Source: Bacteroidaceae bacterium (lineage in GTDB: Bacteria; Bacteroidota; Bacteroidia; Bacteroidales; Bacteroidaceae). Taken from it: 42,521 nt of DNA. The translations under genes and the position numbers were made by a program. Under the pieces are notes generated by a model that made no database searches, was not told the DNA's origin, and was given only the letters and a program-made list of their open reading frames with translations. Positions 4,190 to 41,568 of the stretch are shown one piece after another. Location: the NCBI GenBank assembly GCA_017471185.1, contig JAFUVZ010000040.1, forward strand, positions 1 to 42,521, in the 5' to 3' direction. Positions within the stretch are counted from its first letter, which is position 1. The number at the start of each line of letters is the position of its first letter.

Positions 4190-5923
4190 ATGGCAGGCAA
4201 ATATAAAAAACAGCAACCTCAGCAATTGGACTTATTCCAGTTGCAAATGGAATACCCTAAGGAGATTATCCAGAATTCGAGTCAGGAGATTGACTTGGAC
4301 AATTTGGATGTTTCTAAGAATGTTCTTATCTGCAATGTCAAGAAAGACAATACCCGCCATTTTCTTGATGGTACGGCAAAAATATACTATACCGGTAAAG
4401 AATTCCCTTCGACCATTGCCCTTAACAAGCTATACTATTTCATTCCATACTTTGGCACGAAATGTGGACTAGGCTTTACGGGCTTTCGCGACTTGTACTT
4501 GATAAAGATTGCACGTGTGGGAACAAGAAAAGAGGGTGAGCCGGATAACGACCCTAAGGATTTGCGTCTCGTTTTTGAGCTGCAGTTTGTAAAGCGCCTG
4601 TTCGAACAATATCATCCACACCGACTGAACATTTGGAACTCTTTTACTGATACCACTTTGGCAGCCCTTTCTGAGGCAGGCAAAAAGCAAACTGTAGCCC
4701 TCGAAGATACAATTGTTTTTAATGAGGGCGATGTGAGAATCCAGAAAGGGAAACTAACTCATATTGATTGTTTTGCCGGTCCTGGTGGAATATGCACAGG
4801 GTTGCATGCCGCTGGTATGCAGACATTGGTTGCTATCGAATATATCAAGAGTTGTTGTGAGACCTATACAGCTAATCACCCCGAAGTACACGTTATCCAC
4901 TCAGACATTCGTGAAGTGATGGCAGAACAGATAGTTCCCTATATTCCAGCCAACGGTGTAGATTTAGTTACATCTGGTATGCCTTGTGAGACTTTTTCAA
5001 CGGCAGGCAACACTTCTCGTTCATTCTATGATGACCGTCAATTCCTGTTCCGCGAAGGAATTCGTATAGCGCAAATAGCTAATGCGAAAATGATACTCTT
5101 TGAGAATGTACCAGCCATTACCTCAAAGCGAGAGGCTAAGCAATCAGGAGATTTGATAGTTAACATCCTCAAAAGAGAACTCCGTGCAGCTGGGTATGGG
5201 AACTATATTGAGGTGGTTCTGGATTCCACTAAATATGGCGTACCACAGAAGCGGAATCGCTTTTTCATTCTCGCCTGCCGTTTTCCAGAATGGAAACTCG
5301 GGATACCAAAACCATTAGACAGTCCTATAGTAACGGTGAAAGAAGCGTTGGCAGGTCTTCCTAATGTAATAGCTAACAGCAATCAAGAAGGCAAAGAATA
5401 TACAGACGAACATTCTGATTTTGAGCAATTGATGCGCAACGATGCTTTTTGGGACAGAGAGATGATGTCTTCGAAAAGCATCATGAACCACATGCCTATG
5501 AAACACCGCGAATGTACGCTCAAACGCTTTGCTTTACTTAGACAGGGCGAAAGTTTGAAATCCCTGTTTGACCGATATCAGGGCGATGAACGTGAACGCT
5601 TGCAAGATGAACGCATCTTACCGAAGAAAATGTTTATTAAGCGCAACTATCGCCTGCTGCCAGATGAACCTTCCCCTACTGTAACAAGCCATTGTCTAGA
5701 CGAATTTGTACATCCAGACTATGATCGAGCATTAACAGTCCGAGAATGTGCCAGATTGCAGTCTTTTCCAGACTCGTACACCTTCGCAGGTGGTCCATAT
5801 ATCGTACCTCACATTGACCGTACTGTACAGGACAAGTATGAGCAAATCGGTGATGCAGTACCACCATTGCTGGCCTACGCATGGGGAAAGAAAATCATAG
5901 AACTTTTTGAAACAAATGATTAG
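4190..5923 (+). CDS. DNA (cytosine-5)-methyltransferase
   Basis: A 577-aa C5-cytosine methyltransferase, the protective half of a type II restriction-modification system. The first ~190 residues form an extra N-terminal domain I cannot name (CNVKKDNTRHF, LNKLYYFIPYF). The catalytic domain then shows motif I (DCFAGPGG, 193-200), motif IV with catalytic Cys266 in GMPCETFS (PCE rather than the common PCQ), motif VI FENV, motif VIII VPQKRNRFFI, motif IX RECARLQSFPD, and motif X GDAVPP. The target-recognition region between VIII and IX is short. It lies between the XRE regulator and, 9 nt downstream, the endonuclease. If the endonuclease is BsaWI-like, the target should contain CCGG. Confidence 0.92.
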   Translation: MAGKYKKQQPQQLDLFQLQMEYPKEIIQNSSQEIDLDNLDVSKNVLICNVKKDNTRHFLDGTAKIYYTGKEFPSTIALNKLYYFIPYFGTKCGLGFTGFRDLYLIKIARVGTRKEGEPDNDPKDLRLVFELQFVKRLFEQYHPHRLNIWNSFTDTTLAALSEAGKKQTVALEDTIVFNEGDVRIQKGKLTHIDCFAGPGGICTGLHAAGMQTLVAIEYIKSCCETYTANHPEVHVIHSDIREVMAEQIVPYIPANGVDLVTSGMPCETFSTAGNTSRSFYDDRQFLFREGIRIAQIANAKMILFENVPAITSKREAKQSGDLIVNILKRELRAAGYGNYIEVVLDSTKYGVPQKRNRFFILACRFPEWKLGIPKPLDSPIVTVKEALAGLPNVIANSNQEGKEYTDEHSDFEQLMRNDAFWDREMMSSKSIMNHMPMKHRECTLKRFALLRQGESLKSLFDRYQGDERERLQDERILPKKMFIKRNYRLLPDEPSPTVTSHCLDEFVHPDYDRALTVRECARLQSFPDSYTFAGGPYIVPHIDRTVQDKYEQIGDAVPPLLAYAWGKKIIELFETND

Positions 5924-5932
5924 TTATCATAT

Positions 5933-6799
5933 ATGGAGAATAAGTATTACCAATTTTGTCTGAGAACCTATCAGAATGAATACACACGTTGCTTTCAAAA
6001 ATTGAAAGCAGAGCATAAATCCCCTGTATCCAATAAACTTGCAGAGGACTTTGACCGCGAGGCCCAAAAATCAGCCATCCGCATTGCAATCACCAAAGCC
6101 TTGCGTCAATTTCCCGATGAACCAGTAGCAGAGTTGTGGAGTGCCATCTATCGTGCTCATTTATTCCGAAAATCGGGGATTTCAGATCTCGAAACCATCA
6201 ATAAAGTTATTAGTGCCGACCAAAGTTGGAAAAAATCAAGCGGTCATGCTTTCGAAGAAATGGTCAAAGAATTAGCTTCTCTTGCACTTTATGGAACGGG
6301 TGTTGAAATCATATTGCAGCGCGACCTTAACACGTTGATTAAAGCTGGTGAACTGGCCAATGAGCCACGGGATATTAGTTGGCTGAAAGAGCAAATAAAG
6401 GCCAATATCTTTGACTTGTACGGCATCTTGACTATTGAAGGAAAGAAGTTCTGCTTTGGTTGCGTGCAAGCAAAAACGAGTATTCGCGACCGAGTGACTC
6501 GCGACAGGGAGCCATCCATCCATGCTATGCAATCGTTTTTCTGGAGTGTGGTCTTCGTGTTAGATGGTGATTTCCTGCGTCTTCCCAAATTTGTCAGTAT
6601 GATTAATGGTGGCTCAGAAGAGTTCCGTGAAAATGGTTGGCACGGCATGTATGTGCTGTCGGCCAAAGAAACAAACCAACGTATTTACCCGCTGACAATG
6701 GACTTTGACATTTTCAAGTCCCATGCTCTACAGGCTGCAGAGCAATGGCAAAAACGTCGTCAGTGGTTTGATAGCAGATGGATTGCTGTGACCTCATGA
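5933..6799 (+). CDS. Type II restriction endonuclease, BsaWI/CCGG-like
   Basis: A 288-aa protein directly after the methyltransferase, with the layout of a PD-(D/E)XK nuclease: Asp161 in FDLYG, then CVQAKTSIRDRVTRDREPS with Lys181. The Lys followed by an RDR...RDRE cluster is the hallmark of CCGG-cutting enzymes (Cfr10I, Bse634I, BsaWI), in which the second acidic residue sits downstream of the Lys. The early segment SGHAFEEMVKELA fits the usual N-terminal helix. The BsaWI-family call is from memory of its QxKTSIRDR motif; WCCGGW is a guess at the target. Length is normal for the family. It is the third gene of the operon, and a separate AlbA_2 gene follows 44 nt later. Confidence 0.8.
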   Translation: MENKYYQFCLRTYQNEYTRCFQKLKAEHKSPVSNKLAEDFDREAQKSAIRIAITKALRQFPDEPVAELWSAIYRAHLFRKSGISDLETINKVISADQSWKKSSGHAFEEMVKELASLALYGTGVEIILQRDLNTLIKAGELANEPRDISWLKEQIKANIFDLYGILTIEGKKFCFGCVQAKTSIRDRVTRDREPSIHAMQSFFWSVVFVLDGDFLRLPKFVSMINGGSEEFRENGWHGMYVLSAKETNQRIYPLTMDFDIFKSHALQAAEQWQKRRQWFDSRWIAVTS

Positions 6800-6843
6800 T
6801 AAGAGACACTTTAACTTAGCATAAGTATTCCTCTATTATAATA

Positions 6844-7380
6844 ATGACCATACAAGAAATAATAGTTCGGAAAGAAGACCAAACGTTTGACTGCAAGAGC
6901 ATTCAAATAGACCCGAAGGCTTTGGCAGTGCCCATTGTAGCATTTGCCAATGCGGATGGTGGTGTGATAGCCATTGGGGTATCGGATAAGACTCGGAAGA
7001 TTGAGGGGGTTGACCAACATACGGAGAAGTTGAACGAACTGCTGCGTGTGCCATTTGATTTCTGCAATCCATCGGTTCCAGTGACATGCTCATACCTGCC
7101 TTGCACAGATAAGGATGGGAACGAGAACCGTATCTTGTTGATGGAGATTCCTGCCAGTTCGAGCCTGCATACCAACCAGGCAGATGAAGCCTTTATGCGT
7201 GTTGGCGATAAGAGTCGGAAACTGACCTTTGATGAGCGTGTGCAACTGATGTACGACAAAGGGGAACGCTACTACGAAGATACAGCAGTGTATGGCGCAA
7301 CCATCGATGACATTGACATGGATGCTGTGGCCGACTATGCCAAATTGGTCGGCTATGGAAAAAGTCCCCTGCAATACTAG
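6844..7380 (+). CDS. AlbA_2-domain regulator, N-terminal half
   Basis: 178 residues carrying the AlbA_2 (Schlafen-type) domain: EDQTFDCKSIQID near the start, VAFANADGGVIAIGV, FMRVGDKSRKL. These proteins normally continue with an ATPase-like domain and a winged helix. Here the frame is closed by TAG at 7378-7380, and the same frame goes straight on as RENNGFV and then the downstream half. So this is the front of one gene of about 525 codons interrupted by a single in-frame nonsense codon (probably TTG to TAG, since relatives read YLRENNGF). It lies in the restriction-modification block. It may be a pseudogene, or two separate polypeptides may be made. Confidence 0.75.
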   Translation: MTIQEIIVRKEDQTFDCKSIQIDPKALAVPIVAFANADGGVIAIGVSDKTRKIEGVDQHTEKLNELLRVPFDFCNPSVPVTCSYLPCTDKDGNENRILLMEIPASSSLHTNQADEAFMRVGDKSRKLTFDERVQLMYDKGERYYEDTAVYGATIDDIDMDAVADYAKLVGYGKSPLQY

Positions 7381-7398
7381 CGAGAAAACAATGGTTTT

Positions 7399-8418
7399 GT
7401 GAGGACCAACAAAAAGGCTGCGATTAAGCGAGAGCAGAGCGATGCTCGCATCAGCTCTGCCGAGCGTGAGCAGGCTCGACCGGAGGTCAATGGTGAAGAG
7501 GATGTGAGCACGGCATGTATTCTTCTCTTTGGCAAGTATCCCCAGAAGTTCTTCCCTCGTGCCCGTACTCGCTTCATCAGATATGAAGGTGTTGACGAGA
7601 AGGTAGGTGCTGAAATGAACGTCATCAAGGATGTTACTTTTGAGGGAACCATCTTGAACCAGATCAAGAAAACGATTGAGTTTATCGAGACGCAGGTTCG
7701 TGAGCATACGTTCCTGGGACAACATGCCCAGTTCGTGACAAAGCGCGACTACCCTGAGTTCGTCATTCAAGAGATGACAGTCAACGCTTGTTGCCATCGA
7801 GCCTACAATATCAAGGGTACGGAAATACAAATCAAAATGTTTGATGACCGGTTGGTGTTCGAATCCCCTGGTAAACTCCCAGGACAGGTAAAGCCCAACA
7901 ATATCCGGCACACACACTTCTCTCGTAATCCCAAGATAGCAGCCTTCCTCAAAGCATATCACTTTGTCAAGGAATTCGGCGAGGGCTTTGATCGTATCTG
8001 TCGTGAACAGGAGGCCAATGGTGCCAACGTCCCATCCTTCAGGACCGACGAGTTCATCCTAAAGATTACGGTACCAAAGGTAGCAGAAAACGTACAGAAG
8101 CAAACTGGAAACGTAACAGAAAACGGTGGAAAGGTAGCAGAAAACCATAATAAGGTAGCAGAAAAGGTAGCAGAAAATCATGGCAAGGTCACAGAAAAGT
8201 TGAAAGAAAAGGCTGCGGCATTAGGAGATACATTAACAGCTAATAAAATCAAGATACTTGAACTGATGATTGAAGATCCGTACATATCGAGAGCTGACTT
8301 GGCCAATAATGTCGGAATTAGTGAAACTTCGATTTACCGCAATATCGAAGCCATGCGTGGTAAGTATCTCCGTCGTGTCGGTCCCGACAAAGGTGGTTTT
8401 TGGGAAATAATTTCTTAA
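7399..8418 (+). CDS. AlbA_2/ATPase regulator, C-terminal half
   Basis: This open frame is in the same phase as the N-terminal half, 18 nt past its TAG; a GTG at 7399 is the first possible restart. After an odd ~30-residue Arg/Glu-rich insert (7414-7505) come STACILLFGKYPQ, RTRFIRYEG and the GHKL-like ATP-binding domain (VNACCHRAYNIKG, FESPGKLPG, EFGEGFDRI). A repetitive linker follows, with several KVAEN/KVTE units, then a winged helix-turn-helix (ADLANNVGISETSIYRNIEAM) at the end. Relatives are DNA-binding regulators often found near mobile genes. Whether this half is translated alone is unknown. Confidence 0.72.
   Translation: MRTNKKAAIKREQSDARISSAEREQARPEVNGEEDVSTACILLFGKYPQKFFPRARTRFIRYEGVDEKVGAEMNVIKDVTFEGTILNQIKKTIEFIETQVREHTFLGQHAQFVTKRDYPEFVIQEMTVNACCHRAYNIKGTEIQIKMFDDRLVFESPGKLPGQVKPNNIRHTHFSRNPKIAAFLKAYHFVKEFGEGFDRICREQEANGANVPSFRTDEFILKITVPKVAENVQKQTGNVTENGGKVAENHNKVAEKVAENHGKVTEKLKEKAAALGDTLTANKIKILELMIEDPYISRADLANNVGISETSIYRNIEAMRGKYLRRVGPDKGGFWEIIS
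7434..7460. repeat. Palindromic insert translated inside the AlbA_2 gene
   Basis: GCAGAGCGATGC (7434-7445) pairs with GCATC-a-GCTCTGC (7448-7460), a 12-bp stem with one bulged A. It sits in a stretch of about 90 nt (7414-7505) that encodes a peptide with no place in the family alignment (AAIKREQSDARISSAEREQ), so a palindromic repeat appears to have inserted in frame. Confidence 0.55.
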
Positions 8419-17114: not shown

Positions 17115-18428
17115 ATGATAACGAAGAGCTTTTTATTCAGTATAGCAGCCGTTCTCTGCCTGTGTGCTTGCGGCGATAAAGAGAATAACGTGCTGACACC
17201 TGAACCTGTGGCACCTGTCCAAGTGGAACCAGCACCGGCAAAGCCAGAAGAACCAGTTGAACCTGAGACGCGACACAGCTATAAACCTGTGCAGCTTAAC
17301 GAGAAAGAGCAGGCTATCAATGCCAAGCTGCATGAATTCTCTTGGAAACTATTCAAGGAAGTTTATCGCGGACGTAAGGCAGGAGAGAACCTGATGATCT
17401 CACCTATCAGCCTGGAGGTAGATCTGGGTATGTTCCTCAACGGACTGGAAGGCAACTCCTATCAGGAATTACTCAAGACAATGGGACTACAGGACTATTC
17501 AAAGCAGGAACTCAACTCTTTCTTCCAAACCATGATGACAGGCATAGAGAAAGCGGATGAAGCTGCTATCTTCAAGGGTGCCAACGCTTTCTGGTACAAT
17601 CAGAATAGAAAAGCTAACCAGACTTTCCTCAACGCCATAACGAACTACTATGCTGCCAGAGCTGAGGCGATGGATTTCTCCAACCCCCAAACGAAAAATA
17701 TCATCAACGTCTGGTGTGCTGAACAGACCAACGACCGCATCAAGGATATGGTGGACAGGACTGACGAGAGTGATCTTTTTCACCTCATGAACGCCGTGTA
17801 TTTCAAAGCCGACTGGGACGAGCCGTTTGACAAGCAGCTGACCAGCAAGATGCCTTTCCAATATGCTAATGGCAAAAGCGAGGAAGTGGACATGATGTAC
17901 GATGTATATGAAGGAACATATGCTGAGACCGAGCAATACCAGTTGGGCGTGAGACCTTTTGTTGACGGATCTTTCCAGATGGTATTCATCTTACCTAAGA
18001 AAGGGGTGGCAATGGAGGATGTGATTCCTGCTGTCTTGGATTATAAGGTAACGATTACTGCCGAATGGTATCCTGGCAAGCCTCAGCAGGCTACGATAGA
18101 GCTATACGCTCCCAAGTTCACATCGGAATATACAGAGGAACACCTCTTTGATTATATGAAGACCATCAATCCGAACCTGAAGTTCGATTGGCATGAACTG
18201 TCACTTATGGAAGAGAAAGAGCCTTTGGATTTAAGCGCCTTGCAGAAAACATTCTTCCTGATGGACGAGGAAGGGGCAGAGGCTGCTGCCGTGACCGACA
18301 TCATCGCCAAAAACACATCGATAGGTCCTTCAAGGGTGGCTCAGTTACACCTCGACCGTCCGTTTATCTACGCCATTGTGGAGACAAACACCAGTTGCCC
18401 ATTGTTCATCGGCTACTACGGCAAGTGA
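17115..18428 (+). CDS. Serpin-family lipoprotein
   Basis: A 437-aa serine protease inhibitor. The signal ends in the lipobox LCAC (Cys19), followed by a ~30-residue Pro/Glu/Val-rich linker that would hold the domain off the membrane, then the serpin fold (MISPISLEVDLGMFLNG, FKGANAFWYN, LMNAVYFKADWDEPF). The hinge EEGAEAAAVT matches the inhibitory consensus, so loop insertion and inhibition are expected. Counting from the hinge (P17 Glu) puts P1-P1' at about Thr-Ser in KNTSIG. The end LDRPFIYAIVE is the classic C-terminal motif. Probable role: inhibits host or competitor proteases at the surface. Confidence 0.93.
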   Translation: MITKSFLFSIAAVLCLCACGDKENNVLTPEPVAPVQVEPAPAKPEEPVEPETRHSYKPVQLNEKEQAINAKLHEFSWKLFKEVYRGRKAGENLMISPISLEVDLGMFLNGLEGNSYQELLKTMGLQDYSKQELNSFFQTMMTGIEKADEAAIFKGANAFWYNQNRKANQTFLNAITNYYAARAEAMDFSNPQTKNIINVWCAEQTNDRIKDMVDRTDESDLFHLMNAVYFKADWDEPFDKQLTSKMPFQYANGKSEEVDMMYDVYEGTYAETEQYQLGVRPFVDGSFQMVFILPKKGVAMEDVIPAVLDYKVTITAEWYPGKPQQATIELYAPKFTSEYTEEHLFDYMKTINPNLKFDWHELSLMEEKEPLDLSALQKTFFLMDEEGAEAAAVTDIIAKNTSIGPSRVAQLHLDRPFIYAIVETNTSCPLFIGYYGK

Positions 18429-31656: not shown

Positions 31657-33171
31657 TTATTGATCACCAGTAGGATTCTGATCCTTAGAAGCATCCAGTG
31701 CAGCATTTCCATCGAACTCAGCCTGAGGGATAGTCAGCACCCACATGTAGTTCTCAGGATTGTCTGTAGGACGGTTAGACAACAGGGCAGCATCTGGCCA
31801 GCCCTGAGCAGATGTACGGCGGAAGCCCTGCTTCAGACGACGGATATCGAATACACGTCCGTACTCACCCCACAGCTCGATACGACGCTGGTTGATGATT
31901 TCCTCACGCAGAGAACCAGTAACGTCAGATGTCAGCGCACCCATTGCGGTACCAGTCTTGGTGCAGTTGTAAGCAGGATCACGCTTTGCCATCAACTGGT
32001 TCAGCCAGTTTTGAGCAGAGCTGTTGTCACCCAGCATACAGTTAGCCTCAGCAGCAGTCAGGTAAGCTTCCTCAACACGCATCCAGATATAGTCACCCAT
32101 CCAAGTCTGCATATCAGCGAACTTCAGCTTGTCATTAACTAAGTCAGCAGTCCACCAAGCAGCCTTACGCTCATCGGTATCGTTCATCTTAGCATACAGC
32201 TCAGCATTGATAGCCTTCAGTGCACGACCACCATAAGGAGCATCTGGATCCATGTGAGTGAAGAAACCGGCATACATACCGCTCTGGTCAGATATAATCT
32301 GAGCTCCCCACATCACGTTGCCTGCATCGACACTGTTCACACCGTCGAATGCAGCCACTGGCTGAATGGTGATACCATTGCTGTTAGCCCAAGCAATGGC
32401 AGCTTCAGAAGCAGTCTTTGCAGTCTGCCAGTCTTCCATAGTAAGGGCGATACGAGCCTGCAACTGACGAGCTACGCCGTAGCTGATGTGGCTCTTATGA
32501 GCCTGAGTAGTTCCTTCCAGGTACTGAACAGCCTTCTGGATATCAGAAGTGATCTGTGCATAAACCTGAGCAACGGTAGAACGAGGCTGACCTTCAGTCT
32601 CAGGAGAAGTTGGCTCAGTATAGATAGGAACGCAAGGCTCGCTCTCATGACCCACGTATGTACGAGCAAAGAACTGTGACAGCATGAAGTATGAGTAAGC
32701 ACGGATAGCGTAAGCCTGACCCATTACATAGTTTACGTTGTCACCTTCCATAGTTTCCTCAGCAGCCAGGATATAGTTAGCGTTTGAAATCCACTGATAG
32801 AAAGCAAACCAGAGGTCGTATGAACGCCATGAGCTGCTGGTGAAATGAGCCTTTACATTATATACAGCGTCATACCAGAACCAACCGCTACCAGAGGCTT
32901 TCATGATAAGGTCATCGCCCATCACATCACCTGTCAGATTATAGGCAATGATACCAAAGCACTGGTGAGTGTTACCGGTAGTTGACCAACCGGAAGTGTA
33001 CATAGAACGGTAGATACCGTTCAGAGGAACCATAGCAGCGTCTGAAGTAGTCATCAAGCTGGCACCAGACATAGAGTTGGTTGGCTGGGTATCAAGCTGA
33101 TCTTCAGAGCAAGCGGTGAACATACCACCTGCCAACAAGCCGATTAATGTATATTTAAAAATTGATTTCAT
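31657..33171 (-). CDS. SusD/RagB-family lipoprotein
   Basis: A 504-aa SusD-like protein (lipobox FTAC, Cys21), the substrate-binding lid of the adjacent SusC pore. The helical TPR-like core is seen in NANYILAAEET, YAIRAYSYFMLSQFFAR, AQIARIALTMEDW-like segments and the C-terminal SusD domain (WIRVEEAYLTAAEANCMLGD with IRREL-like GYVDIRRL region FDIRRLKQGF). The gene follows susC by 24 nt. Substrate is unknown because no glycoside hydrolase is linked; a peptide or oligosaccharide are both possible. Confidence 0.92.
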   Translation of the reverse strand: MKSIFKYTLIGLLAGGMFTACSEDQLDTQPTNSMSGASLMTTSDAAMVPLNGIYRSMYTSGWSTTGNTHQCFGIIAYNLTGDVMGDDLIMKASGSGWFWYDAVYNVKAHFTSSSWRSYDLWFAFYQWISNANYILAAEETMEGDNVNYVMGQAYAIRAYSYFMLSQFFARTYVGHESEPCVPIYTEPTSPETEGQPRSTVAQVYAQITSDIQKAVQYLEGTTQAHKSHISYGVARQLQARIALTMEDWQTAKTASEAAIAWANSNGITIQPVAAFDGVNSVDAGNVMWGAQIISDQSGMYAGFFTHMDPDAPYGGRALKAINAELYAKMNDTDERKAAWWTADLVNDKLKFADMQTWMGDYIWMRVEEAYLTAAEANCMLGDNSSAQNWLNQLMAKRDPAYNCTKTGTAMGALTSDVTGSLREEIINQRRIELWGEYGRVFDIRRLKQGFRRTSAQGWPDAALLSNRPTDNPENYMWVLTIPQAEFDGNAALDASKDQNPTGDQ

Positions 33172-33195: not shown

Positions 33196-36100
33196 TTAGA
33201 ACTTCACTTCCACACCTAATGACCATGTCTTATTTGGAGCATAATCATAGTTCGTTCGGCCGTCAAAGCTGTTCTGAGGATCCATACCGTTCAGGTGAGT
33301 GAACAGGGCAAGGTTATCAACAGAACCGAATACACGTACATTGCTCAGACCAGCAGCACGGGTCCATGCCTTTGGCAAGGTGTAACCCAGTGTGATGTTC
33401 TTGATAGCGAAATATGAAGCGTTAACCAAGAAGCGGTTAGTACGAACATTTGAGCTTGCCACTTCAACGCGAGGAACATCAGTGATGTCACCTGGCTTCT
33501 GCCAACGGCGCAACAGATTCTTGTGGAATGCATTGTTGTAGTACATGTTGTCCATAGCCTGTGCATACAGAGCGTCATATACCTTACCACCGATTGAGTA
33601 AGTTGTCAGGATAGAGAGGTCGATGCCCTTCCAAGAGAAGTCAGTTGAGATACTACCATACAGGTCAGGAATACGGCTACCGAAATAGTACTTGGTAGTG
33701 TTAGCCTTAGAGTAGTCAGAAGTAATAGTCTCAGTGCCTGGGATCATATCGCCATTGTCATCCTTGTCATAAGTCCAATAGAGCTGAGCACCTGTTGCAG
33801 GGTCAACGCCGGCAGACTTAGGCATGTAGAATGTACGGAGGGTCATGCCTTCCTTGATGATATAGTTACCACTGATAATCTCAGGAGACTCAGCAGTCAG
33901 CTTCAGCACCTTATTCTTCTGGGTTGAACCCATCCAACGAACGTTCCATTCAAAATCCTTGTTGCGGATGATGGTACCAGTCAAATCCAACTCAATACCG
34001 CTGTTGCGCATATCACCCACGTTAGCATAATAGCCATCGAAACCGGTTGACAGAGGCATCGGGTAGTTCAGCAACATGTCTGTAGTCTTACGAACGTAGA
34101 ACTCACCGCTGAAACGGATGCGGTTATCGAGGAATGTACCTTCAACACCCACGTTGAAGTTGCCGTTCTTCTCCCAAGAGATACCACGGTTTTCCAGAGT
34201 GCTGATGAAACCACCGATCTGGTTAGCGTTAGGGTACTCAAGACTGTAGAGAGACTGCCATGCATAGTAGGTATCGAGGTTATCGTTACCCTGCTGACCG
34301 TAGCTGACCTTCAAAGAGAGGTTGTTGATCCAAGAGATATCCTCCATGAAACGTTCCTTAGAGATACGCCAGTTAGCACCTACTGACCAGAAGGTACCGT
34401 AGCGGTTGTCCTTATAGAAACGGGAAGAACCGTCACGACGGATAGAAGCGTCAAAGTAGTACTTGTCATCATAGTTGTACTGAGCACGGCCCAGCCAAGA
34501 GTTGATGCGGTAATTATGAGTATAAGAGTCAGCATCATACATAGTAGTTGCAGGACGCAGTTCGAGGATACCATCCACGAGGTTTGTCTTACCAGCCTGC
34601 AGATACTCATACTTGTAAGCATAGAACTCATGACCAGCCAACAGACTGATGGTGTGCTTGCCGAAACTGCGGTCCCAAGTGAGCAACTGGTTGAAAGTGT
34701 AGCTCTGGGTGCGTGTGTTACGCTTGGTCAGCAAACCGCCGGCGTTAGCCTGGTTACCATGATACATATTCATATAGTTCATACGGTTCAGGCTGCTGTA
34801 GTCAACACCGAAGTTCAGCTGCAGCTTGATACCCTGTGCCCAGCCCATAGACTCCTTGTCAGAGCCGAAGGTCATGCTGGTACGCAGACCAGCTGCGTCA
34901 CGACGGTCGCGAGCCTTATCCTGAGTCAACATACCTAAAGAGTTGAAGTCGCTCAGTGTACCGGGACGGTTAGCACCTGGCTGATCACCCCAGTCGAGCT
35001 GTGGCTGACCGTTGGCATCCAGTACATTGTTACCGCTGGCATCCTTCACATACATAGGCATCAATGGAGAGAGGAACTGAGCGGTGTACCATACGTTAGA
35101 CGTAGATGTATCTGAATAGTTGCTGAAGTTAGAGTCAGTATGAGTCAGGTTAGTATTGATGCTGGTGTTGAACCAGTCAGTAATCTGAGAAGAAATGTTG
35201 GCACGAGCACTGTAACGCTGGAAAGCCGTAGTCTTCAAGATACCGTCCTCGTTCAGGTAACCTAATGAGAACATATACTTGGTTCTGTCAGTACCACCGT
35301 TTACTGACAGCTGGTGCTCATGACGGAAAGCGTTGTTGTGCTTAACCATGTCAAACCAGTTTTCATTCCATGCTGCCTTAGCATCAGCGTGAATCTGACC
35401 GGTAGCAGGGTCAATCAGCTGGTCCCAAGTGTAGTTCTTGAATGGGTTGTAAAGCTCACCACCCTGGCCACCGAGGTAGTTAGCGCCACCTAAGTTAGCT
35501 CGTGCAGCAGCCTCAGCCTCATTCCAAGAATAGCCATTGTCAAACGCGTATGCGTTACGGATTGCCTCGTAAGTCAGCTGAACGAAGTCCTTCTGGTCAA
35601 CCAAGTCATACTGCTTGATGGCACGAGAAGACCAGCCTAAAGTTGAACGCCAGGTTACCTGAGCCTTACCTTCCTTACCACGCTTAGTAGTGATCATTAC
35701 GACACCGTTAGCACCACGGGCACCATACAGAGCACCGGCAGATGCATCCTTCAGGATAGTCATGCTCTCGATATCAGAAGGGTTCAGAGAGTTCAATTGA
35801 CCATCGTAAGGAATACCATCCACAACATACAGAGGGTCAGAATAAGCATTGATAGAGCCGAAACCACGAACGCGGATTTCAGGAGAAGAACCCGGCTGAC
35901 CAGAACCTGAAGTCATCAGGACACCGGTAGTCTGACCTTCCAGACCCTTGGTTACGTTAGTGATAGGACGAAGCTCCAGTTTCTCATTGTCCACCACAGA
36001 AGCAGAACCAGTGAATGAAGACTTCTTAGCCGTACCGTAAGCCACTACCATCACCTCGTCAAGCAGCTCAGCTTCAGGAGACAGCACTACCTGCACGTTA

Positions 36101-36363
36101 TTGGCGATAGCCACCTCCTGAGTACGGAAGCCGACGAATGAAATCATCAGGGTCGTAGCGTTAGAGGGGACGTTTGGCAGAACGAAAGCACCTTCCACGT
36201 CAGTGATAGTACCAGTAGTCGTTCCTTTTACCAGTACGGAAGCACCGATAACGGGATCTCCCGCCTCATCAACAACGGTACCACGTACTGAACGTGTCTG
36301 TGCCATTGCCAATGTGAAACTTGCAAACAAGCAAGCCAAAAGCACTAATACTCTTTCTTTCAT
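33196..36363 (-). CDS. SusC/RagA TonB-linked outer-membrane protein (leftward)
   Basis: A 1055-aa TonB-dependent transporter. The signal peptide MKERVLVLLACLFASFTLAM is followed by a carboxypeptidase-D-like domain (about 26-110: VRGTVVDEAGDPVIGASVLV), the TonB/plug region (VMVVAYGTAKKSSFTGSA, VRGFGSINAYSDPLYVVDG, ESMTILKDASAGALYGARGANGVV is longer; key part GARGANGVVMITTKRG) and a 22-strand barrel ending in aromatic VEVKF. Together with SusD it imports oligomers across the outer membrane. Its promoter lies at 36566-36597 with a long ~196-nt leader. Its first 66 bp are a near-perfect inverted copy of the start of the divergent susC. Confidence 0.95.
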   Translation of the reverse strand: MKERVLVLLACLFASFTLAMAQTRSVRGTVVDEAGDPVIGASVLVKGTTTGTITDVEGAFVLPNVPSNATTLMISFVGFRTQEVAIANNVQVVLSPEAELLDEVMVVAYGTAKKSSFTGSASVVDNEKLELRPITNVTKGLEGQTTGVLMTSGSGQPGSSPEIRVRGFGSINAYSDPLYVVDGIPYDGQLNSLNPSDIESMTILKDASAGALYGARGANGVVMITTKRGKEGKAQVTWRSTLGWSSRAIKQYDLVDQKDFVQLTYEAIRNAYAFDNGYSWNEAEAAARANLGGANYLGGQGGELYNPFKNYTWDQLIDPATGQIHADAKAAWNENWFDMVKHNNAFRHEHQLSVNGGTDRTKYMFSLGYLNEDGILKTTAFQRYSARANISSQITDWFNTSINTNLTHTDSNFSNYSDTSTSNVWYTAQFLSPLMPMYVKDASGNNVLDANGQPQLDWGDQPGANRPGTLSDFNSLGMLTQDKARDRRDAAGLRTSMTFGSDKESMGWAQGIKLQLNFGVDYSSLNRMNYMNMYHGNQANAGGLLTKRNTRTQSYTFNQLLTWDRSFGKHTISLLAGHEFYAYKYEYLQAGKTNLVDGILELRPATTMYDADSYTHNYRINSWLGRAQYNYDDKYYFDASIRRDGSSRFYKDNRYGTFWSVGANWRISKERFMEDISWINNLSLKVSYGQQGNDNLDTYYAWQSLYSLEYPNANQIGGFISTLENRGISWEKNGNFNVGVEGTFLDNRIRFSGEFYVRKTTDMLLNYPMPLSTGFDGYYANVGDMRNSGIELDLTGTIIRNKDFEWNVRWMGSTQKNKVLKLTAESPEIISGNYIIKEGMTLRTFYMPKSAGVDPATGAQLYWTYDKDDNGDMIPGTETITSDYSKANTTKYYFGSRIPDLYGSISTDFSWKGIDLSILTTYSIGGKVYDALYAQAMDNMYYNNAFHKNLLRRWQKPGDITDVPRVEVASSNVRTNRFLVNASYFAIKNITLGYTLPKAWTRAAGLSNVRVFGSVDNLALFTHLNGMDPQNSFDGRTNYDYAPNKTWSLGVEVKF
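36298..36363 (-). repeat. 66-bp inverted repeat, left copy (susC signal peptide)
   Basis: The first 66 bp of the leftward susC match the first 66 bp of the rightward susC (37085-37150) at 64 positions, in inverted orientation. The match is nearly complete up to the end of the signal peptide and then drops. Similarity just upstream of the ATG is weaker. Confidence 0.85.
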
Positions 36364-36481
36364 AAAACAATTTATTAAAATTAATAACTAAAATCTCCTA
36401 TATCTTTGTGTCATAAGCGATAACGCTCATATCATACCCTTTATTTCCCAAATCTGTTCAGAGGCACTAATAATTGCTTCA

Positions 36482-36494
36482 AAAATCCCCGTTT
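36482..36494 (-). repeat. Inverted AAACGGGGATTTT motif, left copy
   Basis: The 13-nt complement AAAATCCCCGTTT occurs here, in the leader of the leftward susC, with its inverted partner at 37035-37047 in the leader of the rightward susC. Confidence 0.5.
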
Positions 36495-36565
36495 TTTATT
36501 ACACCATATTTATATATAGCTCATTAAACCCCTCCTCTTTTCACATTTTTTAGAAGATATTTCCG

Positions 36566-36597
36566 CAAAGATACAAAATATTTTAAATACGCACCAA
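36566..36597 (-). promoter_or_regulatory. Promoter of leftward susC
   Basis: Minus strand TTG (36597-36595), 21 nt, TATCTTTG (36573-36566), giving a start near 36559 and a leader of about 196 nt. No equally good promoter faces the rightward susC in 36364-37084; the plus-strand TATCTTTG at 36401 has no -33 partner. The remaining intergenic DNA is AT-rich. Confidence 0.65.
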
Positions 36598-36823
36598 ATT
36601 TCTTAAAAGATTTATTACAATGACAATTTGAAAGGAAAACAGCCACATTTTTTGCGAAAGTATAATTTATCTTGCCAAATGATAGGCTTAGACAATCTAC
36701 AACAAGTATCAAAACAATGCCACACTAACATAATGACAGAAACTATACTGGAAAAATATGTAAAATAATTCCCTTTTTTCTCTTTCTTATGTCATTTTAC
36801 CAGTGCAGAAGTGAACTATCTTG

Positions 36824-36856
36824 TGAAACAGGACAATGAAACAATACTGTGAAACA
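36824..36856. repeat. Three TGAAACA repeats at 13-bp spacing
   Basis: TGAAACA at 36824, 36837 and 36850, and two more copies at 36967 and 36991, all direct and in the intergenic region between the divergent susC genes. Regular spacing suggests a protein-binding array, upstream of the rightward susC. Confidence 0.55.
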
Positions 36857-36896
36857 AATAAATCATTTTCTACTAAAAGATTAATAGAAACAAATA

Positions 36897-36918
36897 CTTT
36901 CTGAGATGACTCAGAAAG
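36897..36918. promoter_or_regulatory. 22-bp palindrome in susC intergenic region
   Basis: CTTTCTGAG (36897-36905) pairs with CTCAGAAAG (36910-36918) around ATGA. It could be an operator or the arm of a recombinase site; no T-tract suggests it is not a terminator. Confidence 0.45.
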
Positions 36919-37034
36919 CACTCCCTAATCTATAATCTCAAAACTTCCCTTTGATAGGGCGTTTTATGAAACAGGAATCTAACGATATTATGAAACAATT
37001 ATTATAAACTCCTCTTTTTCAAAAGGTCTTGAAT

Positions 37035-37047
37035 AAACGGGGATTTT
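37035..37047 (+). repeat. AAACGGGGATTTT motif, right copy
   Basis: Plus-strand copy of the 13-nt motif, 38 nt before the rightward susC start codon; the inverted copy is at 36482-36494. Confidence 0.5.
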
Positions 37048-37084
37048 GCTGAAACTTTTATTACTAATTATAACAGTTATTTTT

Positions 37085-37150
37085 ATGAAAGAAAGAGTAT
37101 TAGTGCTTTTGGCTTGCTTGTTTGCGAGCTTCACATTGGCAATGGCACAG
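37085..37150 (+). repeat. 66-bp inverted repeat, right copy
   Basis: The inverted partner of 36298-36363; differs at two positions (GCGAGC instead of GCAAGT). Confidence 0.85.
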
Positions 37151-40100
37151 AATTCAACGGTTTCAGGTACCGTAGTCGATGAGACTGGAGAGCCTGTCAT
37201 CGGAGCTTCTATTCTTGTGGAGGGTACTGCAAGAGGTACCATCTCAGATGTAGAAGGTAAATTCACCATAACCAATGTCCCTGCATCGGCTAAGAACCTG
37301 CAGGTGTCTTTTGTAGGTATGAGAACCCAGCTGGTTCCTATTACTAACGGTAACATACAGATAGTATTAAGGAATGACGCTGAAGTACTTGACGAAGTGA
37401 TGGTCGTTGCATACGGCACCACGACCAAGGCTTCTTTTACAGGCTCTGCTTCTGTGATGCGAGATACTGACATGTCCGCTCAACGCCAGTCTCTGGTTAA
37501 GTCATTAGAAGGTAAGGTAGCCGGCGTTCGTGTTGGTGCTTCCACTGGTGACCCTGGGTCAGACCAGGCGATAACTATCCGCGGTATCGGCTCTGTAAAC
37601 GGATCTACCCAACCCCTGTATGTTGTTGACGGCGTGCCCATCACCAATGAAAGCATGATCAGTTCTGGCGTACGTTCACAGTCTGTTCTTTCAACTATCA
37701 ATCCTGACGATATTGAGAGCATGACCGTATTGAAGGATGCTGCCGCTTCTTCACTTTATGGTTCGCGTGCTGCGAATGGTGTCATCATCATTACCACCAA
37801 GCGTGGTGCCATTGGCCGCACCAAGGTAACTTACGATGGTGAAGCAGGTTGGAGCAGTGTAGCAGTTCCAAGCGCACTGAAAATGATGAACTCCAAAGAG
37901 CTGAAACAATATTACAAGGATGCGTTAGCCGGGTATTTTGAGGTACGTGCAGGTCAGGATGCGGCTACTGCCGCTGAATATGCGCAGGAAGAGGTTGATA
38001 CACCTTGGGATGAAGGCGGATGGTTCCATGACCCTACCAGCAGTGTCAATACCGACTGGAGTAAAGAGGTTTATCGTACTGGCTTTACAACCAACCATCA
38101 GGTAGGCGTAAGCGGTGGGTCTGACAGGACCCAGTTCTATGCAAGTTTTGGTTACAACAAAGTAAACGGTACTGTTAAGAACAGTGAGTTTGAGCGTTAC
38201 AGTGGCCGTATCAACTTAGACCATCAGGTAACCGATTGGCTGAAGGTGGGTGTAAAACAGATGATATCTTACTCTAATACCGAAGGTTTCCGTGACCAAG
38301 GCGACCAGGCGCAGGGCTTCGGAACAACAGCGCCGCTTTCAATTATGTTCTCTTCTGACCCAAGCGCAACAGTAAAATTGCCTAATGGAGAGTATAACCC
38401 TGACACTGCATTCGGCAAGGTGGCAAATCCAAACCTGATGCTGAGCCGTACACTGAATGAATATGCTGAGTTCGTCAAGACCAACACCATGCGTAGTATG
38501 ACAAACGCTGACGTTGAAATCAAGTTGCCTTTCAACTTAACAGCACGATCTGTCTTCGGCTATGACTTTATTAATAATAAGGTGCATGAATTCTGGGCTC
38601 CAGGATCTGTGAACGGTGAATCTCTGACAGGTCTGTCTCAGCGTTGGGACTATACTAACCGGACTTTGACCTCTTCGACTACATTGAACTATGCCAACAA
38701 TTTCGGGTTGCACAACCTTCAAGTATTAGCAGGTTTCGAGGTTGAAAAGCGCAAATATGAATCGCTGACAGCCTCCGCTAAGCAGTTTGTAACATATAAA
38801 CTGCCTGAAATCTCCAATGGACAGACTTATGGTACTGGCGGTTCAGTGAGTGAGAATTCCATCATGTCCTGGTTAGCTAACGCCAACTACAACTATGACA
38901 ACAAGTATTATGTATCCGCTTCTTTCCGTCGTGACGGATCTTCACGACTGGCAACGGACAACCGTTGGTCTAACTTCTGGTCAGTTTCTGGTGCTTGGAG
39001 AATCAGCGGTGAGGAGTTCTTAAAAGATAATCCTTGGTTCAATGACTTAAAACTCCGTGTATCATACGGTACTAACGGCAACTTGCCCACGGGCAACTAT
39101 TCATACATGGGCCTTTACTCAACTACAGGCGGTTACGGTACAAGTTCTGCATACTACTGGTCACAGCTTTCTAACACAGCATTAGGTTGGGAGAAGTCAA
39201 AGAACTTCAACATAGGTTTGGATTGGAATCTGTTCGGACGTGTAGGCCTGACTGTTGAATACTATAATAAGGTAACCAGTGACATGCTGTTCGCAACGCC
39301 TATCTCATGGGTTACAGGCTTCGGCAGCAAGACATCCAACCTTGGTAAATTAGGCAACAGTGGCGTTGAAATCGCTATCAGTTCACAAAACATCGTGACC
39401 AAGAACTTCAGCTGGTCAACAGACTTCAACATTACCTTCCAGAGCAACAAGATTAAGGAACTTCCTAATGGAGAGGACGTTCAGTATGGTGACGGTAGCA
39501 TGTACCTGCTACGCGAAGGAGAATCTATGCATACTTTCTATCTGCCAGAGTATATCGGCGTGAATAAGGAAACCGGTCTGGGTGAATTCTGGATTGACCC
39601 GGAAGACCACTCAAAAGGTGTGACTAACTACTACACTCAGGCTGGAAGTACTATCGTGGGTAAAGCTATACCAGACTTCCTCGGTGGTATCACCAACCGC
39701 TTCACTTGGAAGAATTTCGACCTTTCATTCATGATTTCATTCCAGGGTGGCGCAAGTATGTTCGATTATCCGGGTTACTTCCTGCAGTTCTCTGATGGTG
39801 TTCGCGTAGGTTCTTTCAATGTCGTGAAGGAAGTTGCAGGCAACTATTGGACTCCGACCCATACGGATGCAGAATATCCACGTCCTATCTACGGTAACCC
39901 ATACCGTTCAGACCGTTTCTCTTCTCGCACCATTCGTTCTACCGACAATATCCGTATGCGCGATATTACCTTCGGTTACAGAATTCCCGTGAAGAAGAGT
40001 GTCATCAGCAATATGCGTGTATATTTCCGTGCAACCAATCCGTTCTTGATTTACTGTGCTACCAAGAACATTGATCCGGATGTAGATGTGAACGGTTATC

Positions 40101-40159
40101 GTCAGACTGACACACCTCCAACGCGCTCATTTGTATTTGGATTGAACTTTGAATTATAA
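37085..40159 (+). CDS. SusC/RagA TonB-linked outer-membrane protein (rightward)
   Basis: A 1024-aa SusC-like transporter. The signal peptide (MKERVLVLLACLFASFTLAM, the same as the leftward paralogue) leads to a carboxypeptidase-D-like domain (VSGTVVDETGEPVIGASILV), plug (VMVVAYGTTTKASFTGSA, IRGIGSVNGSTQPLYVVDG, LYGSRAANGVIIITTKRG) and a barrel ending in FGLNFEL. The paralogues diverge beyond the signal peptide, so substrates probably differ. The ATG at 37085 is chosen; an upstream in-frame opening (37046) falls in the leader. The gene is followed by susD 20 nt downstream. No canonical promoter is visible. Confidence 0.95.
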   Translation: MKERVLVLLACLFASFTLAMAQNSTVSGTVVDETGEPVIGASILVEGTARGTISDVEGKFTITNVPASAKNLQVSFVGMRTQLVPITNGNIQIVLRNDAEVLDEVMVVAYGTTTKASFTGSASVMRDTDMSAQRQSLVKSLEGKVAGVRVGASTGDPGSDQAITIRGIGSVNGSTQPLYVVDGVPITNESMISSGVRSQSVLSTINPDDIESMTVLKDAAASSLYGSRAANGVIIITTKRGAIGRTKVTYDGEAGWSSVAVPSALKMMNSKELKQYYKDALAGYFEVRAGQDAATAAEYAQEEVDTPWDEGGWFHDPTSSVNTDWSKEVYRTGFTTNHQVGVSGGSDRTQFYASFGYNKVNGTVKNSEFERYSGRINLDHQVTDWLKVGVKQMISYSNTEGFRDQGDQAQGFGTTAPLSIMFSSDPSATVKLPNGEYNPDTAFGKVANPNLMLSRTLNEYAEFVKTNTMRSMTNADVEIKLPFNLTARSVFGYDFINNKVHEFWAPGSVNGESLTGLSQRWDYTNRTLTSSTTLNYANNFGLHNLQVLAGFEVEKRKYESLTASAKQFVTYKLPEISNGQTYGTGGSVSENSIMSWLANANYNYDNKYYVSASFRRDGSSRLATDNRWSNFWSVSGAWRISGEEFLKDNPWFNDLKLRVSYGTNGNLPTGNYSYMGLYSTTGGYGTSSAYYWSQLSNTALGWEKSKNFNIGLDWNLFGRVGLTVEYYNKVTSDMLFATPISWVTGFGSKTSNLGKLGNSGVEIAISSQNIVTKNFSWSTDFNITFQSNKIKELPNGEDVQYGDGSMYLLREGESMHTFYLPEYIGVNKETGLGEFWIDPEDHSKGVTNYYTQAGSTIVGKAIPDFLGGITNRFTWKNFDLSFMISFQGGASMFDYPGYFLQFSDGVRVGSFNVVKEVAGNYWTPTHTDAEYPRPIYGNPYRSDRFSSRTIRSTDNIRMRDITFGYRIPVKKSVISNMRVYFRATNPFLIYCATKNIDPDVDVNGYRQTDTPPTRSFVFGLNFEL

Positions 40160-40179: not shown

Positions 40180-41568
40180 ATGAAGAAAATATACTTAACA
40201 ATCGGAGTTGTCACTGGCTTTGTTCTGTCGTCATGCAGCGGTTTCTTAGACAGAGAGCCTTCTACCGCATTGCCAGTTGACGGAGCTATTACTACCGTAG
40301 CCGATTTGGAAAATGCCGTCAATGGCGTGGGTTACGTAGTATCTGGTGAAAGAGGCACCTACGGCGCTGAGTTTACCCTCTATGCGGACCTTCTGACCAA
40401 TGAGTTTGCTGTAATTCAAAGCAACAACCAAAGCGTGCCTATCTCCAGCTATAACCTGACAAAGTATGACGAACTGGCTACCAACCCATATCGCGTACAT
40501 TATCAGGGCATTGCTAATGTAAATAAGGCACTTGAAACTTCAAACGAACTGGCAGGCAGTGAAGTTACCAACCTGCAGGGTCAGCTCTATGCTTGGCGAG
40601 GACTACTCCACTTTGACTTGGCCCGTATGTTCGCCCATATTCCATCTACCGTCAGCAACACGTCAGAGGCAAACTCCGGCGTGCCTTTGGCAGACCAGGT
40701 ATTTGATCCAGAATACAAGCCAACACGCGCCACATTAGCAGAGACTTATAGCCTGATTATTTCTGATTTCACCAAGGCTATCAGTATGTTGGATGAAGAC
40801 AACGGCATAGGTTATATGAACAAATGGGCAGCTCAGGCTTTACGTGCACGCGCTTATCTCTATATGGGTGACTATAGCAATGCATTGGCTGATGCAAATG
40901 CCGTTATCAACAGCGGCGCATACCAGCTCTACACACCATCCAATTATGCAAGCGTTTGGGCAGCAGAAGGAACTTCTGAGTCTATCTTTGAATTCTTGAC
41001 CACAGACAACTATAATGCACAGCGTTATTCACCTGGCTATTACACGGATGCGAGTGGCTATGCAGAGTGCGCTTTCAATGTGGAGGGAGAACTGTTTAAG
41101 TATCTGTCAACTCATCCTGAAGACGTACGCTCTAAAATGATCAAGGACCAGACTTCTCACAAAGATGCTCCTGGATTCTATCCAGCCAAATACCCTGGCC
41201 GTGGCGGTTCTATTTATGTGAATAACCCCAAGATCATCCGTCTGTCTGAGGTATATCTGATTGCTGCTGAGGCATCTTTCCATCTCAATGGCGGCAGTGA
41301 GGCTGCTGCTTACATTAATGAGATTGAGAAAAACCGTGTTGAAGGTTATACTGATGTGGCTTCAGTTACTATTGACGATATCATCTTCGAATATACCAAG
41401 GAACTGTTTGCTGAAAACCAGATTGCATTCGCATACTGGCGCAACGGCAAATCTGTCACTAACTCTTTAGGCCAGCAGATAGGCGCGGACAACCAACGTG
41501 CCATCATGCCAATTCCACAGCGTGAAATCGACATGAACGCTGCTTTGGTCCAGAATCCAGGCTATTAA
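40180..41568 (+). CDS. SusD/RagB-family lipoprotein (rightward locus)
   Basis: A 462-aa SusD-like lipoprotein (lipobox LSSC, Cys19: VLSSCSGFLDREPSTALP). The N-terminal SusD-like motif NVNKALE, the repeated helical hairpins (YAWRGLLHFDLARMF, AAQALRARAYLYMGDYSNAL) and the C-terminal SusD domain (RLSEVYLIAAEASFHLNGG) are visible. Pairs with the SusC just upstream to import a glycan or peptide. A strong terminator follows at 41605-41635. Confidence 0.92.
   Translation: MKKIYLTIGVVTGFVLSSCSGFLDREPSTALPVDGAITTVADLENAVNGVGYVVSGERGTYGAEFTLYADLLTNEFAVIQSNNQSVPISSYNLTKYDELATNPYRVHYQGIANVNKALETSNELAGSEVTNLQGQLYAWRGLLHFDLARMFAHIPSTVSNTSEANSGVPLADQVFDPEYKPTRATLAETYSLIISDFTKAISMLDEDNGIGYMNKWAAQALRARAYLYMGDYSNALADANAVINSGAYQLYTPSNYASVWAAEGTSESIFEFLTTDNYNAQRYSPGYYTDASGYAECAFNVEGELFKYLSTHPEDVRSKMIKDQTSHKDAPGFYPAKYPGRGGSIYVNNPKIIRLSEVYLIAAEASFHLNGGSEAAAYINEIEKNRVEGYTDVASVTIDDIIFEYTKELFAENQIAFAYWRNGKSVTNSLGQQIGADNQRAIMPIPQREIDMNAALVQNPGY

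What the first reader, a model, noticed from the sequence alone, without database searches (positions are those of the whole stretch)
36298..37150. Divergent susC genes may share a seamless promoter-swapping inversion
The two divergent susC genes begin with 66-bp sequences that are inverted copies (64/66). They span the start codon and signal peptide and flank 721 bp of intergenic DNA. A recombination between them would flip the whole upstream region, moving promoters between the two loci while leaving both reading frames intact. Only the leftward gene has a canonical promoter (36566-36597); I find none pointing right. That would make the pair an either/or switch between two import systems. 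Alternative: the match reflects gene conversion or recent duplication of the signal peptide. No recombinase gene is in the window.
Basis: partly seen in the sequence, partly recalled or inferred. Interest (0 to 1): 0.8.

Follow-up and report, generated by a model that had tools for sequence, protein, structure and literature searches.

The report
Flippable promoter between paired nutrient transporters
A bacterium related to ruminant-stomach species appears to carry one reversible promoter between two back-to-back nutrient-import systems; relatives suggest that it flips at short repeats beside it, while the longer repeated signal-peptide sequence is where the two genes have swapped front ends during evolution.

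Summary
In detail: 36298-36363 and 37085-37150 are inverted copies (64/66), the only two in the assembly, at the starts of two susC genes whose bodies are 31% identical. The locus is a relative of the Bacteroides SusC/SusD shufflon that lacks its recombinase. G028 and G114 have a tyrosine recombinase between such arms, G239 beside the one arm its contig holds; the yak genome G237 has arms without one.

The either/or promoter logic is supported by comparison: five of five complete intervals hold exactly one canonical promoter, inside an inverted repeat. But the likelier switch sites are inner short repeats (here 36482-36497/37032-37047, 15/16), not the signal-peptide copies. A relative pair with unlike signal peptides (G026/G238) has perfect inner repeats, and the one assembly gap in the G238 stretch lies exactly between them.

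The 66-bp block is where 5' ends were exchanged in evolution: the G239 susC_R orthologue carries the upstream region of the other gene, joined inside the block; in G114 two unlike bodies share one leader. Whether the block also inverts actively is open; no reads could be tested. New variant of a known kind.

The parts
36298..36363 (-). outer inverted repeat, left arm: start codon and signal peptide of susC_L
   Evidence: 64/66 to the right arm; only two copies in the assembly
37085..37150 (+). outer inverted repeat, right arm: start codon and signal peptide of susC_R
   Evidence: 64/66 to the left arm
36482..36497 (+). inner inverted repeat, left arm (proposed switch site)
   Evidence: 15/16 with the right arm; 1 of 300 shuffles as good; exact motif only here and at the other arm in the assembly
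37032..37047 (-). inner inverted repeat, right arm (proposed switch site)
   Evidence: as for the left arm
36566..36598 (-). only full promoter consensus match of the interval, pointing to susC_L
   Evidence: TTTG-N21-TATCTTTG
33196..36363 (-). susC_L, 1055 aa
   Evidence: TIGR04056 SusC/RagA 854.7 bits; Plug and CarbopepD_reg_2
31657..33171 (-). susD_L, 504 aa
   Evidence: SusD-like_3 and SusD_RagB
37085..40159 (+). susC_R, 1024 aa
   Evidence: TIGR04056 SusC/RagA 853.7 bits; 91% to G028
40180..41568 (+). susD_R, 462 aa
   Evidence: SusD-like_3 and SusD_RagB
36824..36997 (+). five TGAAACA heptamers, the first three 13 bp apart; role unknown, possibly binding sites

Best explanation
This is a recombinase-less relative of the Bacteroides SusC/SusD shufflon, reduced to two complete, divergent susC-susD operons that share one promoter. 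Proposed mechanism: an invertase supplied from elsewhere (or since lost, or absent from this 80%-complete assembly) inverts the promoter segment at the inner short repeats 36482-36497 / 37032-37047, so that the promoter drives either susC_L (the state assembled here) or susC_R. The outer 66-bp signal-peptide repeats are a second, slower level: recombination there (inversion or gene conversion) has at times exchanged the 5' regions of the two genes without breaking either frame. Shown by sequence: both nested repeats, the single promoter, the same plan in relatives, exchanged 5' regions in relatives. Inferred: that inversion happens in cells, which site is used, and that only one operon is on at a time.
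For: Exactly one full promoter match in each of 5 complete intervals (G000, G026, G028, G237, G114), each inside the innermost inverted repeat. Inner repeats: 16 bp perfect in G026/G238, 17 bp perfect in G237, 23 bp at 91% in G028 around recombinase and promoter, 15/16 in the window. Shuffles at least as good: 1 of 300 (window), 0 of 600 (G026), 0 of 600 (G237). The window motif has two exact matches in the assembly, these two. G238 has one N run in 19,001 bases, exactly between the inner repeats, with flanks identical to G026 over 80 and 84 nt. G026 has inner repeats although its signal peptides match only 39/66. Recombinase between the arms in G028 and G114; G028 and G239 copies at dN 0.09, dS 0.48. 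Exchanged 5' regions: G239 versus G028, G114 leaders versus bodies, susC_L upstream resembling that of G028 susC_R, 0 of 2000 shuffles.
Against: No reads or transcripts. The inner repeat of the window is short, not the same sequence as in relatives, and set unevenly (118 and 37 nt from the two start codons); earlier shuffle runs gave 1 of 100 and 1 of 60 unweighted. Inverted repeats are common in such genomes: 1,997 were listed for B. thetaiotaomicron (passage of PMC10994844). No invertase is tied to the site in this assembly. No flipped interval was seen: only the own genome matched among 399 family genomes. The G238 gap may have another cause.
Confidence: 0.55

Rival explanations
1. One reading: the 66-bp signal-peptide repeats are themselves the active switch site, and the whole interval flips, carrying promoter and leaders from one gene to the other.
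For: Arms 64/66 in the window, 65/66 in G028, 64/66 in G237, 65/66 in G114; recombinase between the arms in G028 and G114; the G239 leader exchange has its join inside the block; in shufflon loci the inverted repeat also lies in susC coding sequence.
Against: G026/G238 have a one-promoter interval with inner repeats and unlike signal peptides (39/66). Leaders are also alike between species (62-66 of 66 among G000, G026, G028, G237, G239), so within-pair likeness alone does not show active inversion. A near-perfect 66-bp coding match is long for such sites, and gene conversion explains it as well.
Confidence: 0.2
2. No switch here: the signal peptides are kept alike by occasional homologous recombination or recent acquisition of a shared 5' end, the inner repeat is a relic or chance, and the promoter is fixed towards susC_L.
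For: No recombinase on the contig; inner repeat of the window only moderately significant; leader sharing also occurs in unpaired genes such as G057 and the third G114 copy.
Against: susC_R and susD_R are full-length open frames with no promoter match pointing to them, which would be odd for a gene never switched on; the same one-promoter plan recurs in 5 of 5 complete intervals.
Confidence: 0.22
3. Nucleotide-level constraint (translation start, secretion or RNA regulation) rather than recombination keeps the first 66 nt alike.
For: The block is more conserved than the next blocks between orthologues, e.g. G000_R against G028_R 94% then 68, 85, 80%.
Against: In G114 both leaders changed together (65/66 to each other, 51-52/66 to their orthologues), an unpaired R paralogue in G239 is at 55/66, and the G026 partner gene has an unlike leader. 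No Rfam family matches the window.
Confidence: 0.06
4. Assembly artefact: the inverted arms are a chimeric join.
For: Draft assembly of 85 contigs, 80% complete.
Against: G028, G237 and G114 show the same arrangement with orthologous susC_R; the arms differ at two bases.
Confidence: 0.02

Closest known systems
Bacteroides SusC/SusD shufflon (Tsr0667-type inversions of B. fragilis; Nakayama-Imaohji 2009, not held, known here through passages of PMC4747536)
   Same: SusC/SusD pairs, tyrosine recombinase beside them in relatives, inverted repeats at the 5' end of susC; susC_R is 55-63% identical to susC genes of genus members, including intact and truncated ones in shufflon-like loci.
   Different: Two complete divergent susC genes rather than one expressed and truncated silent copies; no recombinase; no inverted repeat starting near +201 as in 24 of the 26 loci where one was found.
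Bacteroidales invertible promoters (inverted repeats flanking one promoter, e.g. capsule loci; passages of PMC12632263 and PMC10939037)
   Same: One canonical promoter between short inverted repeats, surface-protein operons.
   Different: A complete operon on each side, so a flip would choose between two systems rather than on or off; a second, outer repeat lies in coding sequence.
Salmonella Hin flagellar phase switch (recalled, no call)
   Same: One invertible promoter segment decides between two surface-protein states; in G028 the recombinase lies inside the inner repeats, as hin does.
   Different: Hin is a serine invertase and the second choice is made through a repressor; no repeated signal peptide.

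Membership tests
Bacteroides SusC/SusD shufflon | susC/susD genes of the shufflon kind | tested here: met
   TIGR04056 over cut-off for both genes; susC_R related to intact and truncated susC genes of shufflon-like loci, 55-63%
Bacteroides SusC/SusD shufflon | cognate tyrosine recombinase at the locus | tested here: not met
   none on the contig; no relative of the G114 recombinase at E 1e-30 in the assembly; present in G028, G114, G239
Bacteroides SusC/SusD shufflon | inverted repeat starting near +201 of susC | tested here: not met
   24 of 26 loci with a repeat found start at +193 to +202 (30 loci tested); in the window that block is 59% identical
Bacteroides SusC/SusD shufflon | 5'-truncated silent cassettes | tested here: not met
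   both susC genes are complete; contig ends 953 bp beyond susD_R, so cassettes further out are unseen
invertible promoter (inverton) | promoter between short inverted repeats | tested here: met
   promoter 36566-36598 inside 36482-36497/37032-37047
invertible promoter (inverton) | both orientations present in a population | not testable with these tools
   no reads; only an assembly gap in G238 hints at it
invertible promoter (inverton) | cognate invertase | tested here: inconclusive
   6 Phage_integrase matches elsewhere in the assembly, none assigned to this site

The most novel reading that the evidence does not exclude
A nested two-level switch: inner repeats flip the promoter between two transporter operons, and the coding-sequence signal-peptide repeats are a second active inversion site, so that promoter direction and 5' leader are assorted separately (four states) without breaking either reading frame.
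Probability: 0.18. Interest if true: 0.75.

Novelty: new variant of a known kind. Interest (0 to 1): 0.52.

Why it matters
If true, it shows how a cassette shufflon can be reduced to a two-way transporter switch, and it suggests a simple rule (the signal peptide as the joint) by which SusC genes take on new regulation without losing secretion. It would also predict which of two nutrient receptors, possibly phage receptors too, a cell displays.

Tried and rejected
Chance as the source of the 66-bp arms: rejected. General likeness of susC signal peptides in this genome: rejected, no other copy is close. A decayed recombinase in the interval: no tblastn match with the two recombinases tried. The shufflon site near +201: not in this pair. 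A known structural RNA: no Rfam match at gathering score in the window. A flipped or similar interval elsewhere: only the own genome matched among 399 family genomes. Solved structures for the G028 recombinase: no meaningful match; it is a tyrosine recombinase by Phage_int_SAM_5 over the cut-off and Phage_integrase just under it, 25.6 against 27.1 bits. The G028 recombinase is rare: 1 of 399 family genomes at E 1e-70, at 37% identity. The nearest relative in the own assembly is 37% identical on a 3.1-kb contig, with no susC seen there.

Literature: six searches. Among the papers listed I saw none whose title or shown abstract describes repeated signal peptides as inversion sites between divergent susC genes. 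I saw listings, and passages only, of PMC10939037, PMC12632263, PMC12548429, PMC4747536, PMC8042965, PMC12118408 and PMC10994844; no paper was read whole. Nakayama-Imaohji 2009 and Porter 2020 were not held. The promoter consensus, the Hin comparison and the meaning of RUG/RUI codes are recalled.

Full report
Observation. The window is contig C72 of an unnamed assembly (G000, 2.76 Mb, 85 contigs, 80% complete). The susC starts at 36363 (-) and 37085 (+) match 64/66 over the first 22 codons in inverted orientation. The next 66-nt block is 65% identical and, beyond residue 110, the proteins are 31% identical. The assembly holds only these two copies, although 20 matches to the domain that follows the signal peptide were found. 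One full promoter match lies in the interval, pointing left, at 36566-36598. No tyrosine recombinase is on the contig.

Relatives. The 66-nt sequence matched 8 of 198 genomes, own included. A pattern scan of named species genomes gave nine stretches from seven metagenome-assembled genomes titled as Bacteroidaceae or Bacteroidales; three titles name goat or yak forestomach samples. Divergent pairs with matching signal-peptide arms were seen in four genomes: G000 64/66, G028 65/66, G237 64/66, G114 65/66. G028 and G114 carry a tyrosine recombinase between the arms; the two recombinases are 21.6% identical over 315 residues. In G239 a copy of the G028 recombinase lies beside the R gene and the contig ends there, so the partner arm is not seen; the two copies show dN 0.09 and dS 0.48. 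The G237 and G000 intervals (335 and 721 bp) have none.

Link to the shufflon. Relatives of the G114 recombinase occur in 95 of 158 genus genomes at E 1e-60. I looked at 30 loci, which include G114 itself. Many have an intact susC on one side of the recombinase and a susC without its 5' end on the other. An inverted repeat was found in 26 of 30; in 24 of these it begins 193-202 nt after the start codon; the exceptions are G114 (-102 to +232) and L049, with a weaker match further in; four gave none in the DNA held. A search with susC_R matched 10 of 158 genus genomes; two of these, G218 and G222, match at the places of G237 and G239. The matches at 55-63% include two intact susC genes beside such a recombinase and two without a normal 5' end; one more, G235, is intact with no open frame of 70 codons in the 1.5 kb held upstream. 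So the window locus is related to the shufflon but fails tested features of it (recombinase, repeat near +201, truncated cassettes).

Inner repeats. G026 has 16-bp perfect inverted repeats 207 bp apart; G238 has the same arms; G237 has 17 bp perfect, 205 bp apart; G028 has 23 bp at 91%, around recombinase and promoter. In the window 36482-36497 and 37032-37047 match 15/16. Composition-weighted shuffles at least as good: 1 of 300, 0 of 600, 0 of 600 for G000, G026, G237; an earlier run gave 1 of 100, 1 of 200, 0 of 200 and an unweighted score 1 of 60, 2 of 150, 0 of 150. The window motif has two exact matches in the assembly, these two, and nine matches at 2 mismatches; the reversed control pattern has six at up to 2. 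Five of five complete intervals have one full promoter match, each inside the innermost repeat; G238 has none because that segment is missing; the cut G239 interval has one, with a 23-nt spacer, pointing away from its R gene and outside the repeat. In G238 the only N run in 19,001 bases stands exactly between the inner repeats, and its flanks equal those of G026 over 80 and 84 nt. Assemblers can leave such a gap when both orientations are present, but this is indirect, and the collections also mask some stretches.

Exchange in the signal-peptide block. The G239 R gene follows G028 susC_X upstream (75.7% over 202 nt, E 2e-33) and G028 susC_R downstream (91% body identity), with the change inside the 66 nt. 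The upstream region of susC_L in the window resembles that of G028 susC_R (0 of 2000 shuffles as good), while that of susC_R does not (825 of 1000); against G028 susC_X the figures are 102 of 1000 for susC_L and 586 of 1000 for susC_R. In G114 the R and Z bodies belong with G000_R (89%, open piece of 632 aa) and G026_Y (78%), but their leaders belong together (65/66) and not with those orthologues (51 and 52 of 66); the G000_R and G026_Y leaders match 64/66. An unpaired R paralogue in G239 is at 55/66 to its paired copy, though later blocks are 79-97% alike. Inversion and gene conversion both fit. Against a special tie between the two arms of one genome: G026_Y, paired with an unlike gene, has the common leader; orthologous R leaders of G028 and G237 match 66/66, no less than arms within a genome; and unpaired genes in G057 and G114 share the second leader type (58-62 of 66).

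Interpretation. The best reading is a promoter switch at the inner repeats plus occasional recombination in the signal-peptide block. If the inner segment flipped, the promoter would lie at about 36931-36963 pointing right, some 120 nt before susC_R; this is arithmetic on coordinates, not an observation. The genus label of the assembly was not given; that it is Bacteroides in the wide sense is inferred from its relatives. No read, transcript or experiment was available, so inversion in cells remains inferred.

Noticed in passing
G000 contigs C30, C1, C75 (L097, L093, L094): A possible second susC shufflon in the same assembly: recombinase genes of 314 and 309 aa beside susC genes, with two contigs ending inside a shared susC N-terminal sequence.
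   Followed up: partly
L110 versus L029: The whole susD_R-susC_R / susC_X-susD_X cluster is turned round relative to the flanking sdhAB-like and D-Ala-D-Ala dipeptidase-like genes in the yak genome G237 compared with the goat genome G028.
   Followed up: partly
window 36824-36997: Five TGAAACA heptamers on the + strand of the 721-bp interval, three of them 13 bp apart, against 17 on both strands of the whole window.
   Followed up: no
window 4190-8418: C-5 cytosine DNA methylase gene followed by a BsaWI-type restriction endonuclease, then Schlafen/AlbA_2 and HATPase_c_4 genes: a likely restriction-modification cluster.
   Followed up: no
G212:C1 and G202:C1: Each has two copies of the shufflon-type recombinase with equal scores on opposite strands (11 kb apart in G212), perhaps a larger inverted arrangement.
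   Followed up: no
window 17115-18428: A serpin (serine protease inhibitor) gene, 437 aa.
   Followed up: no
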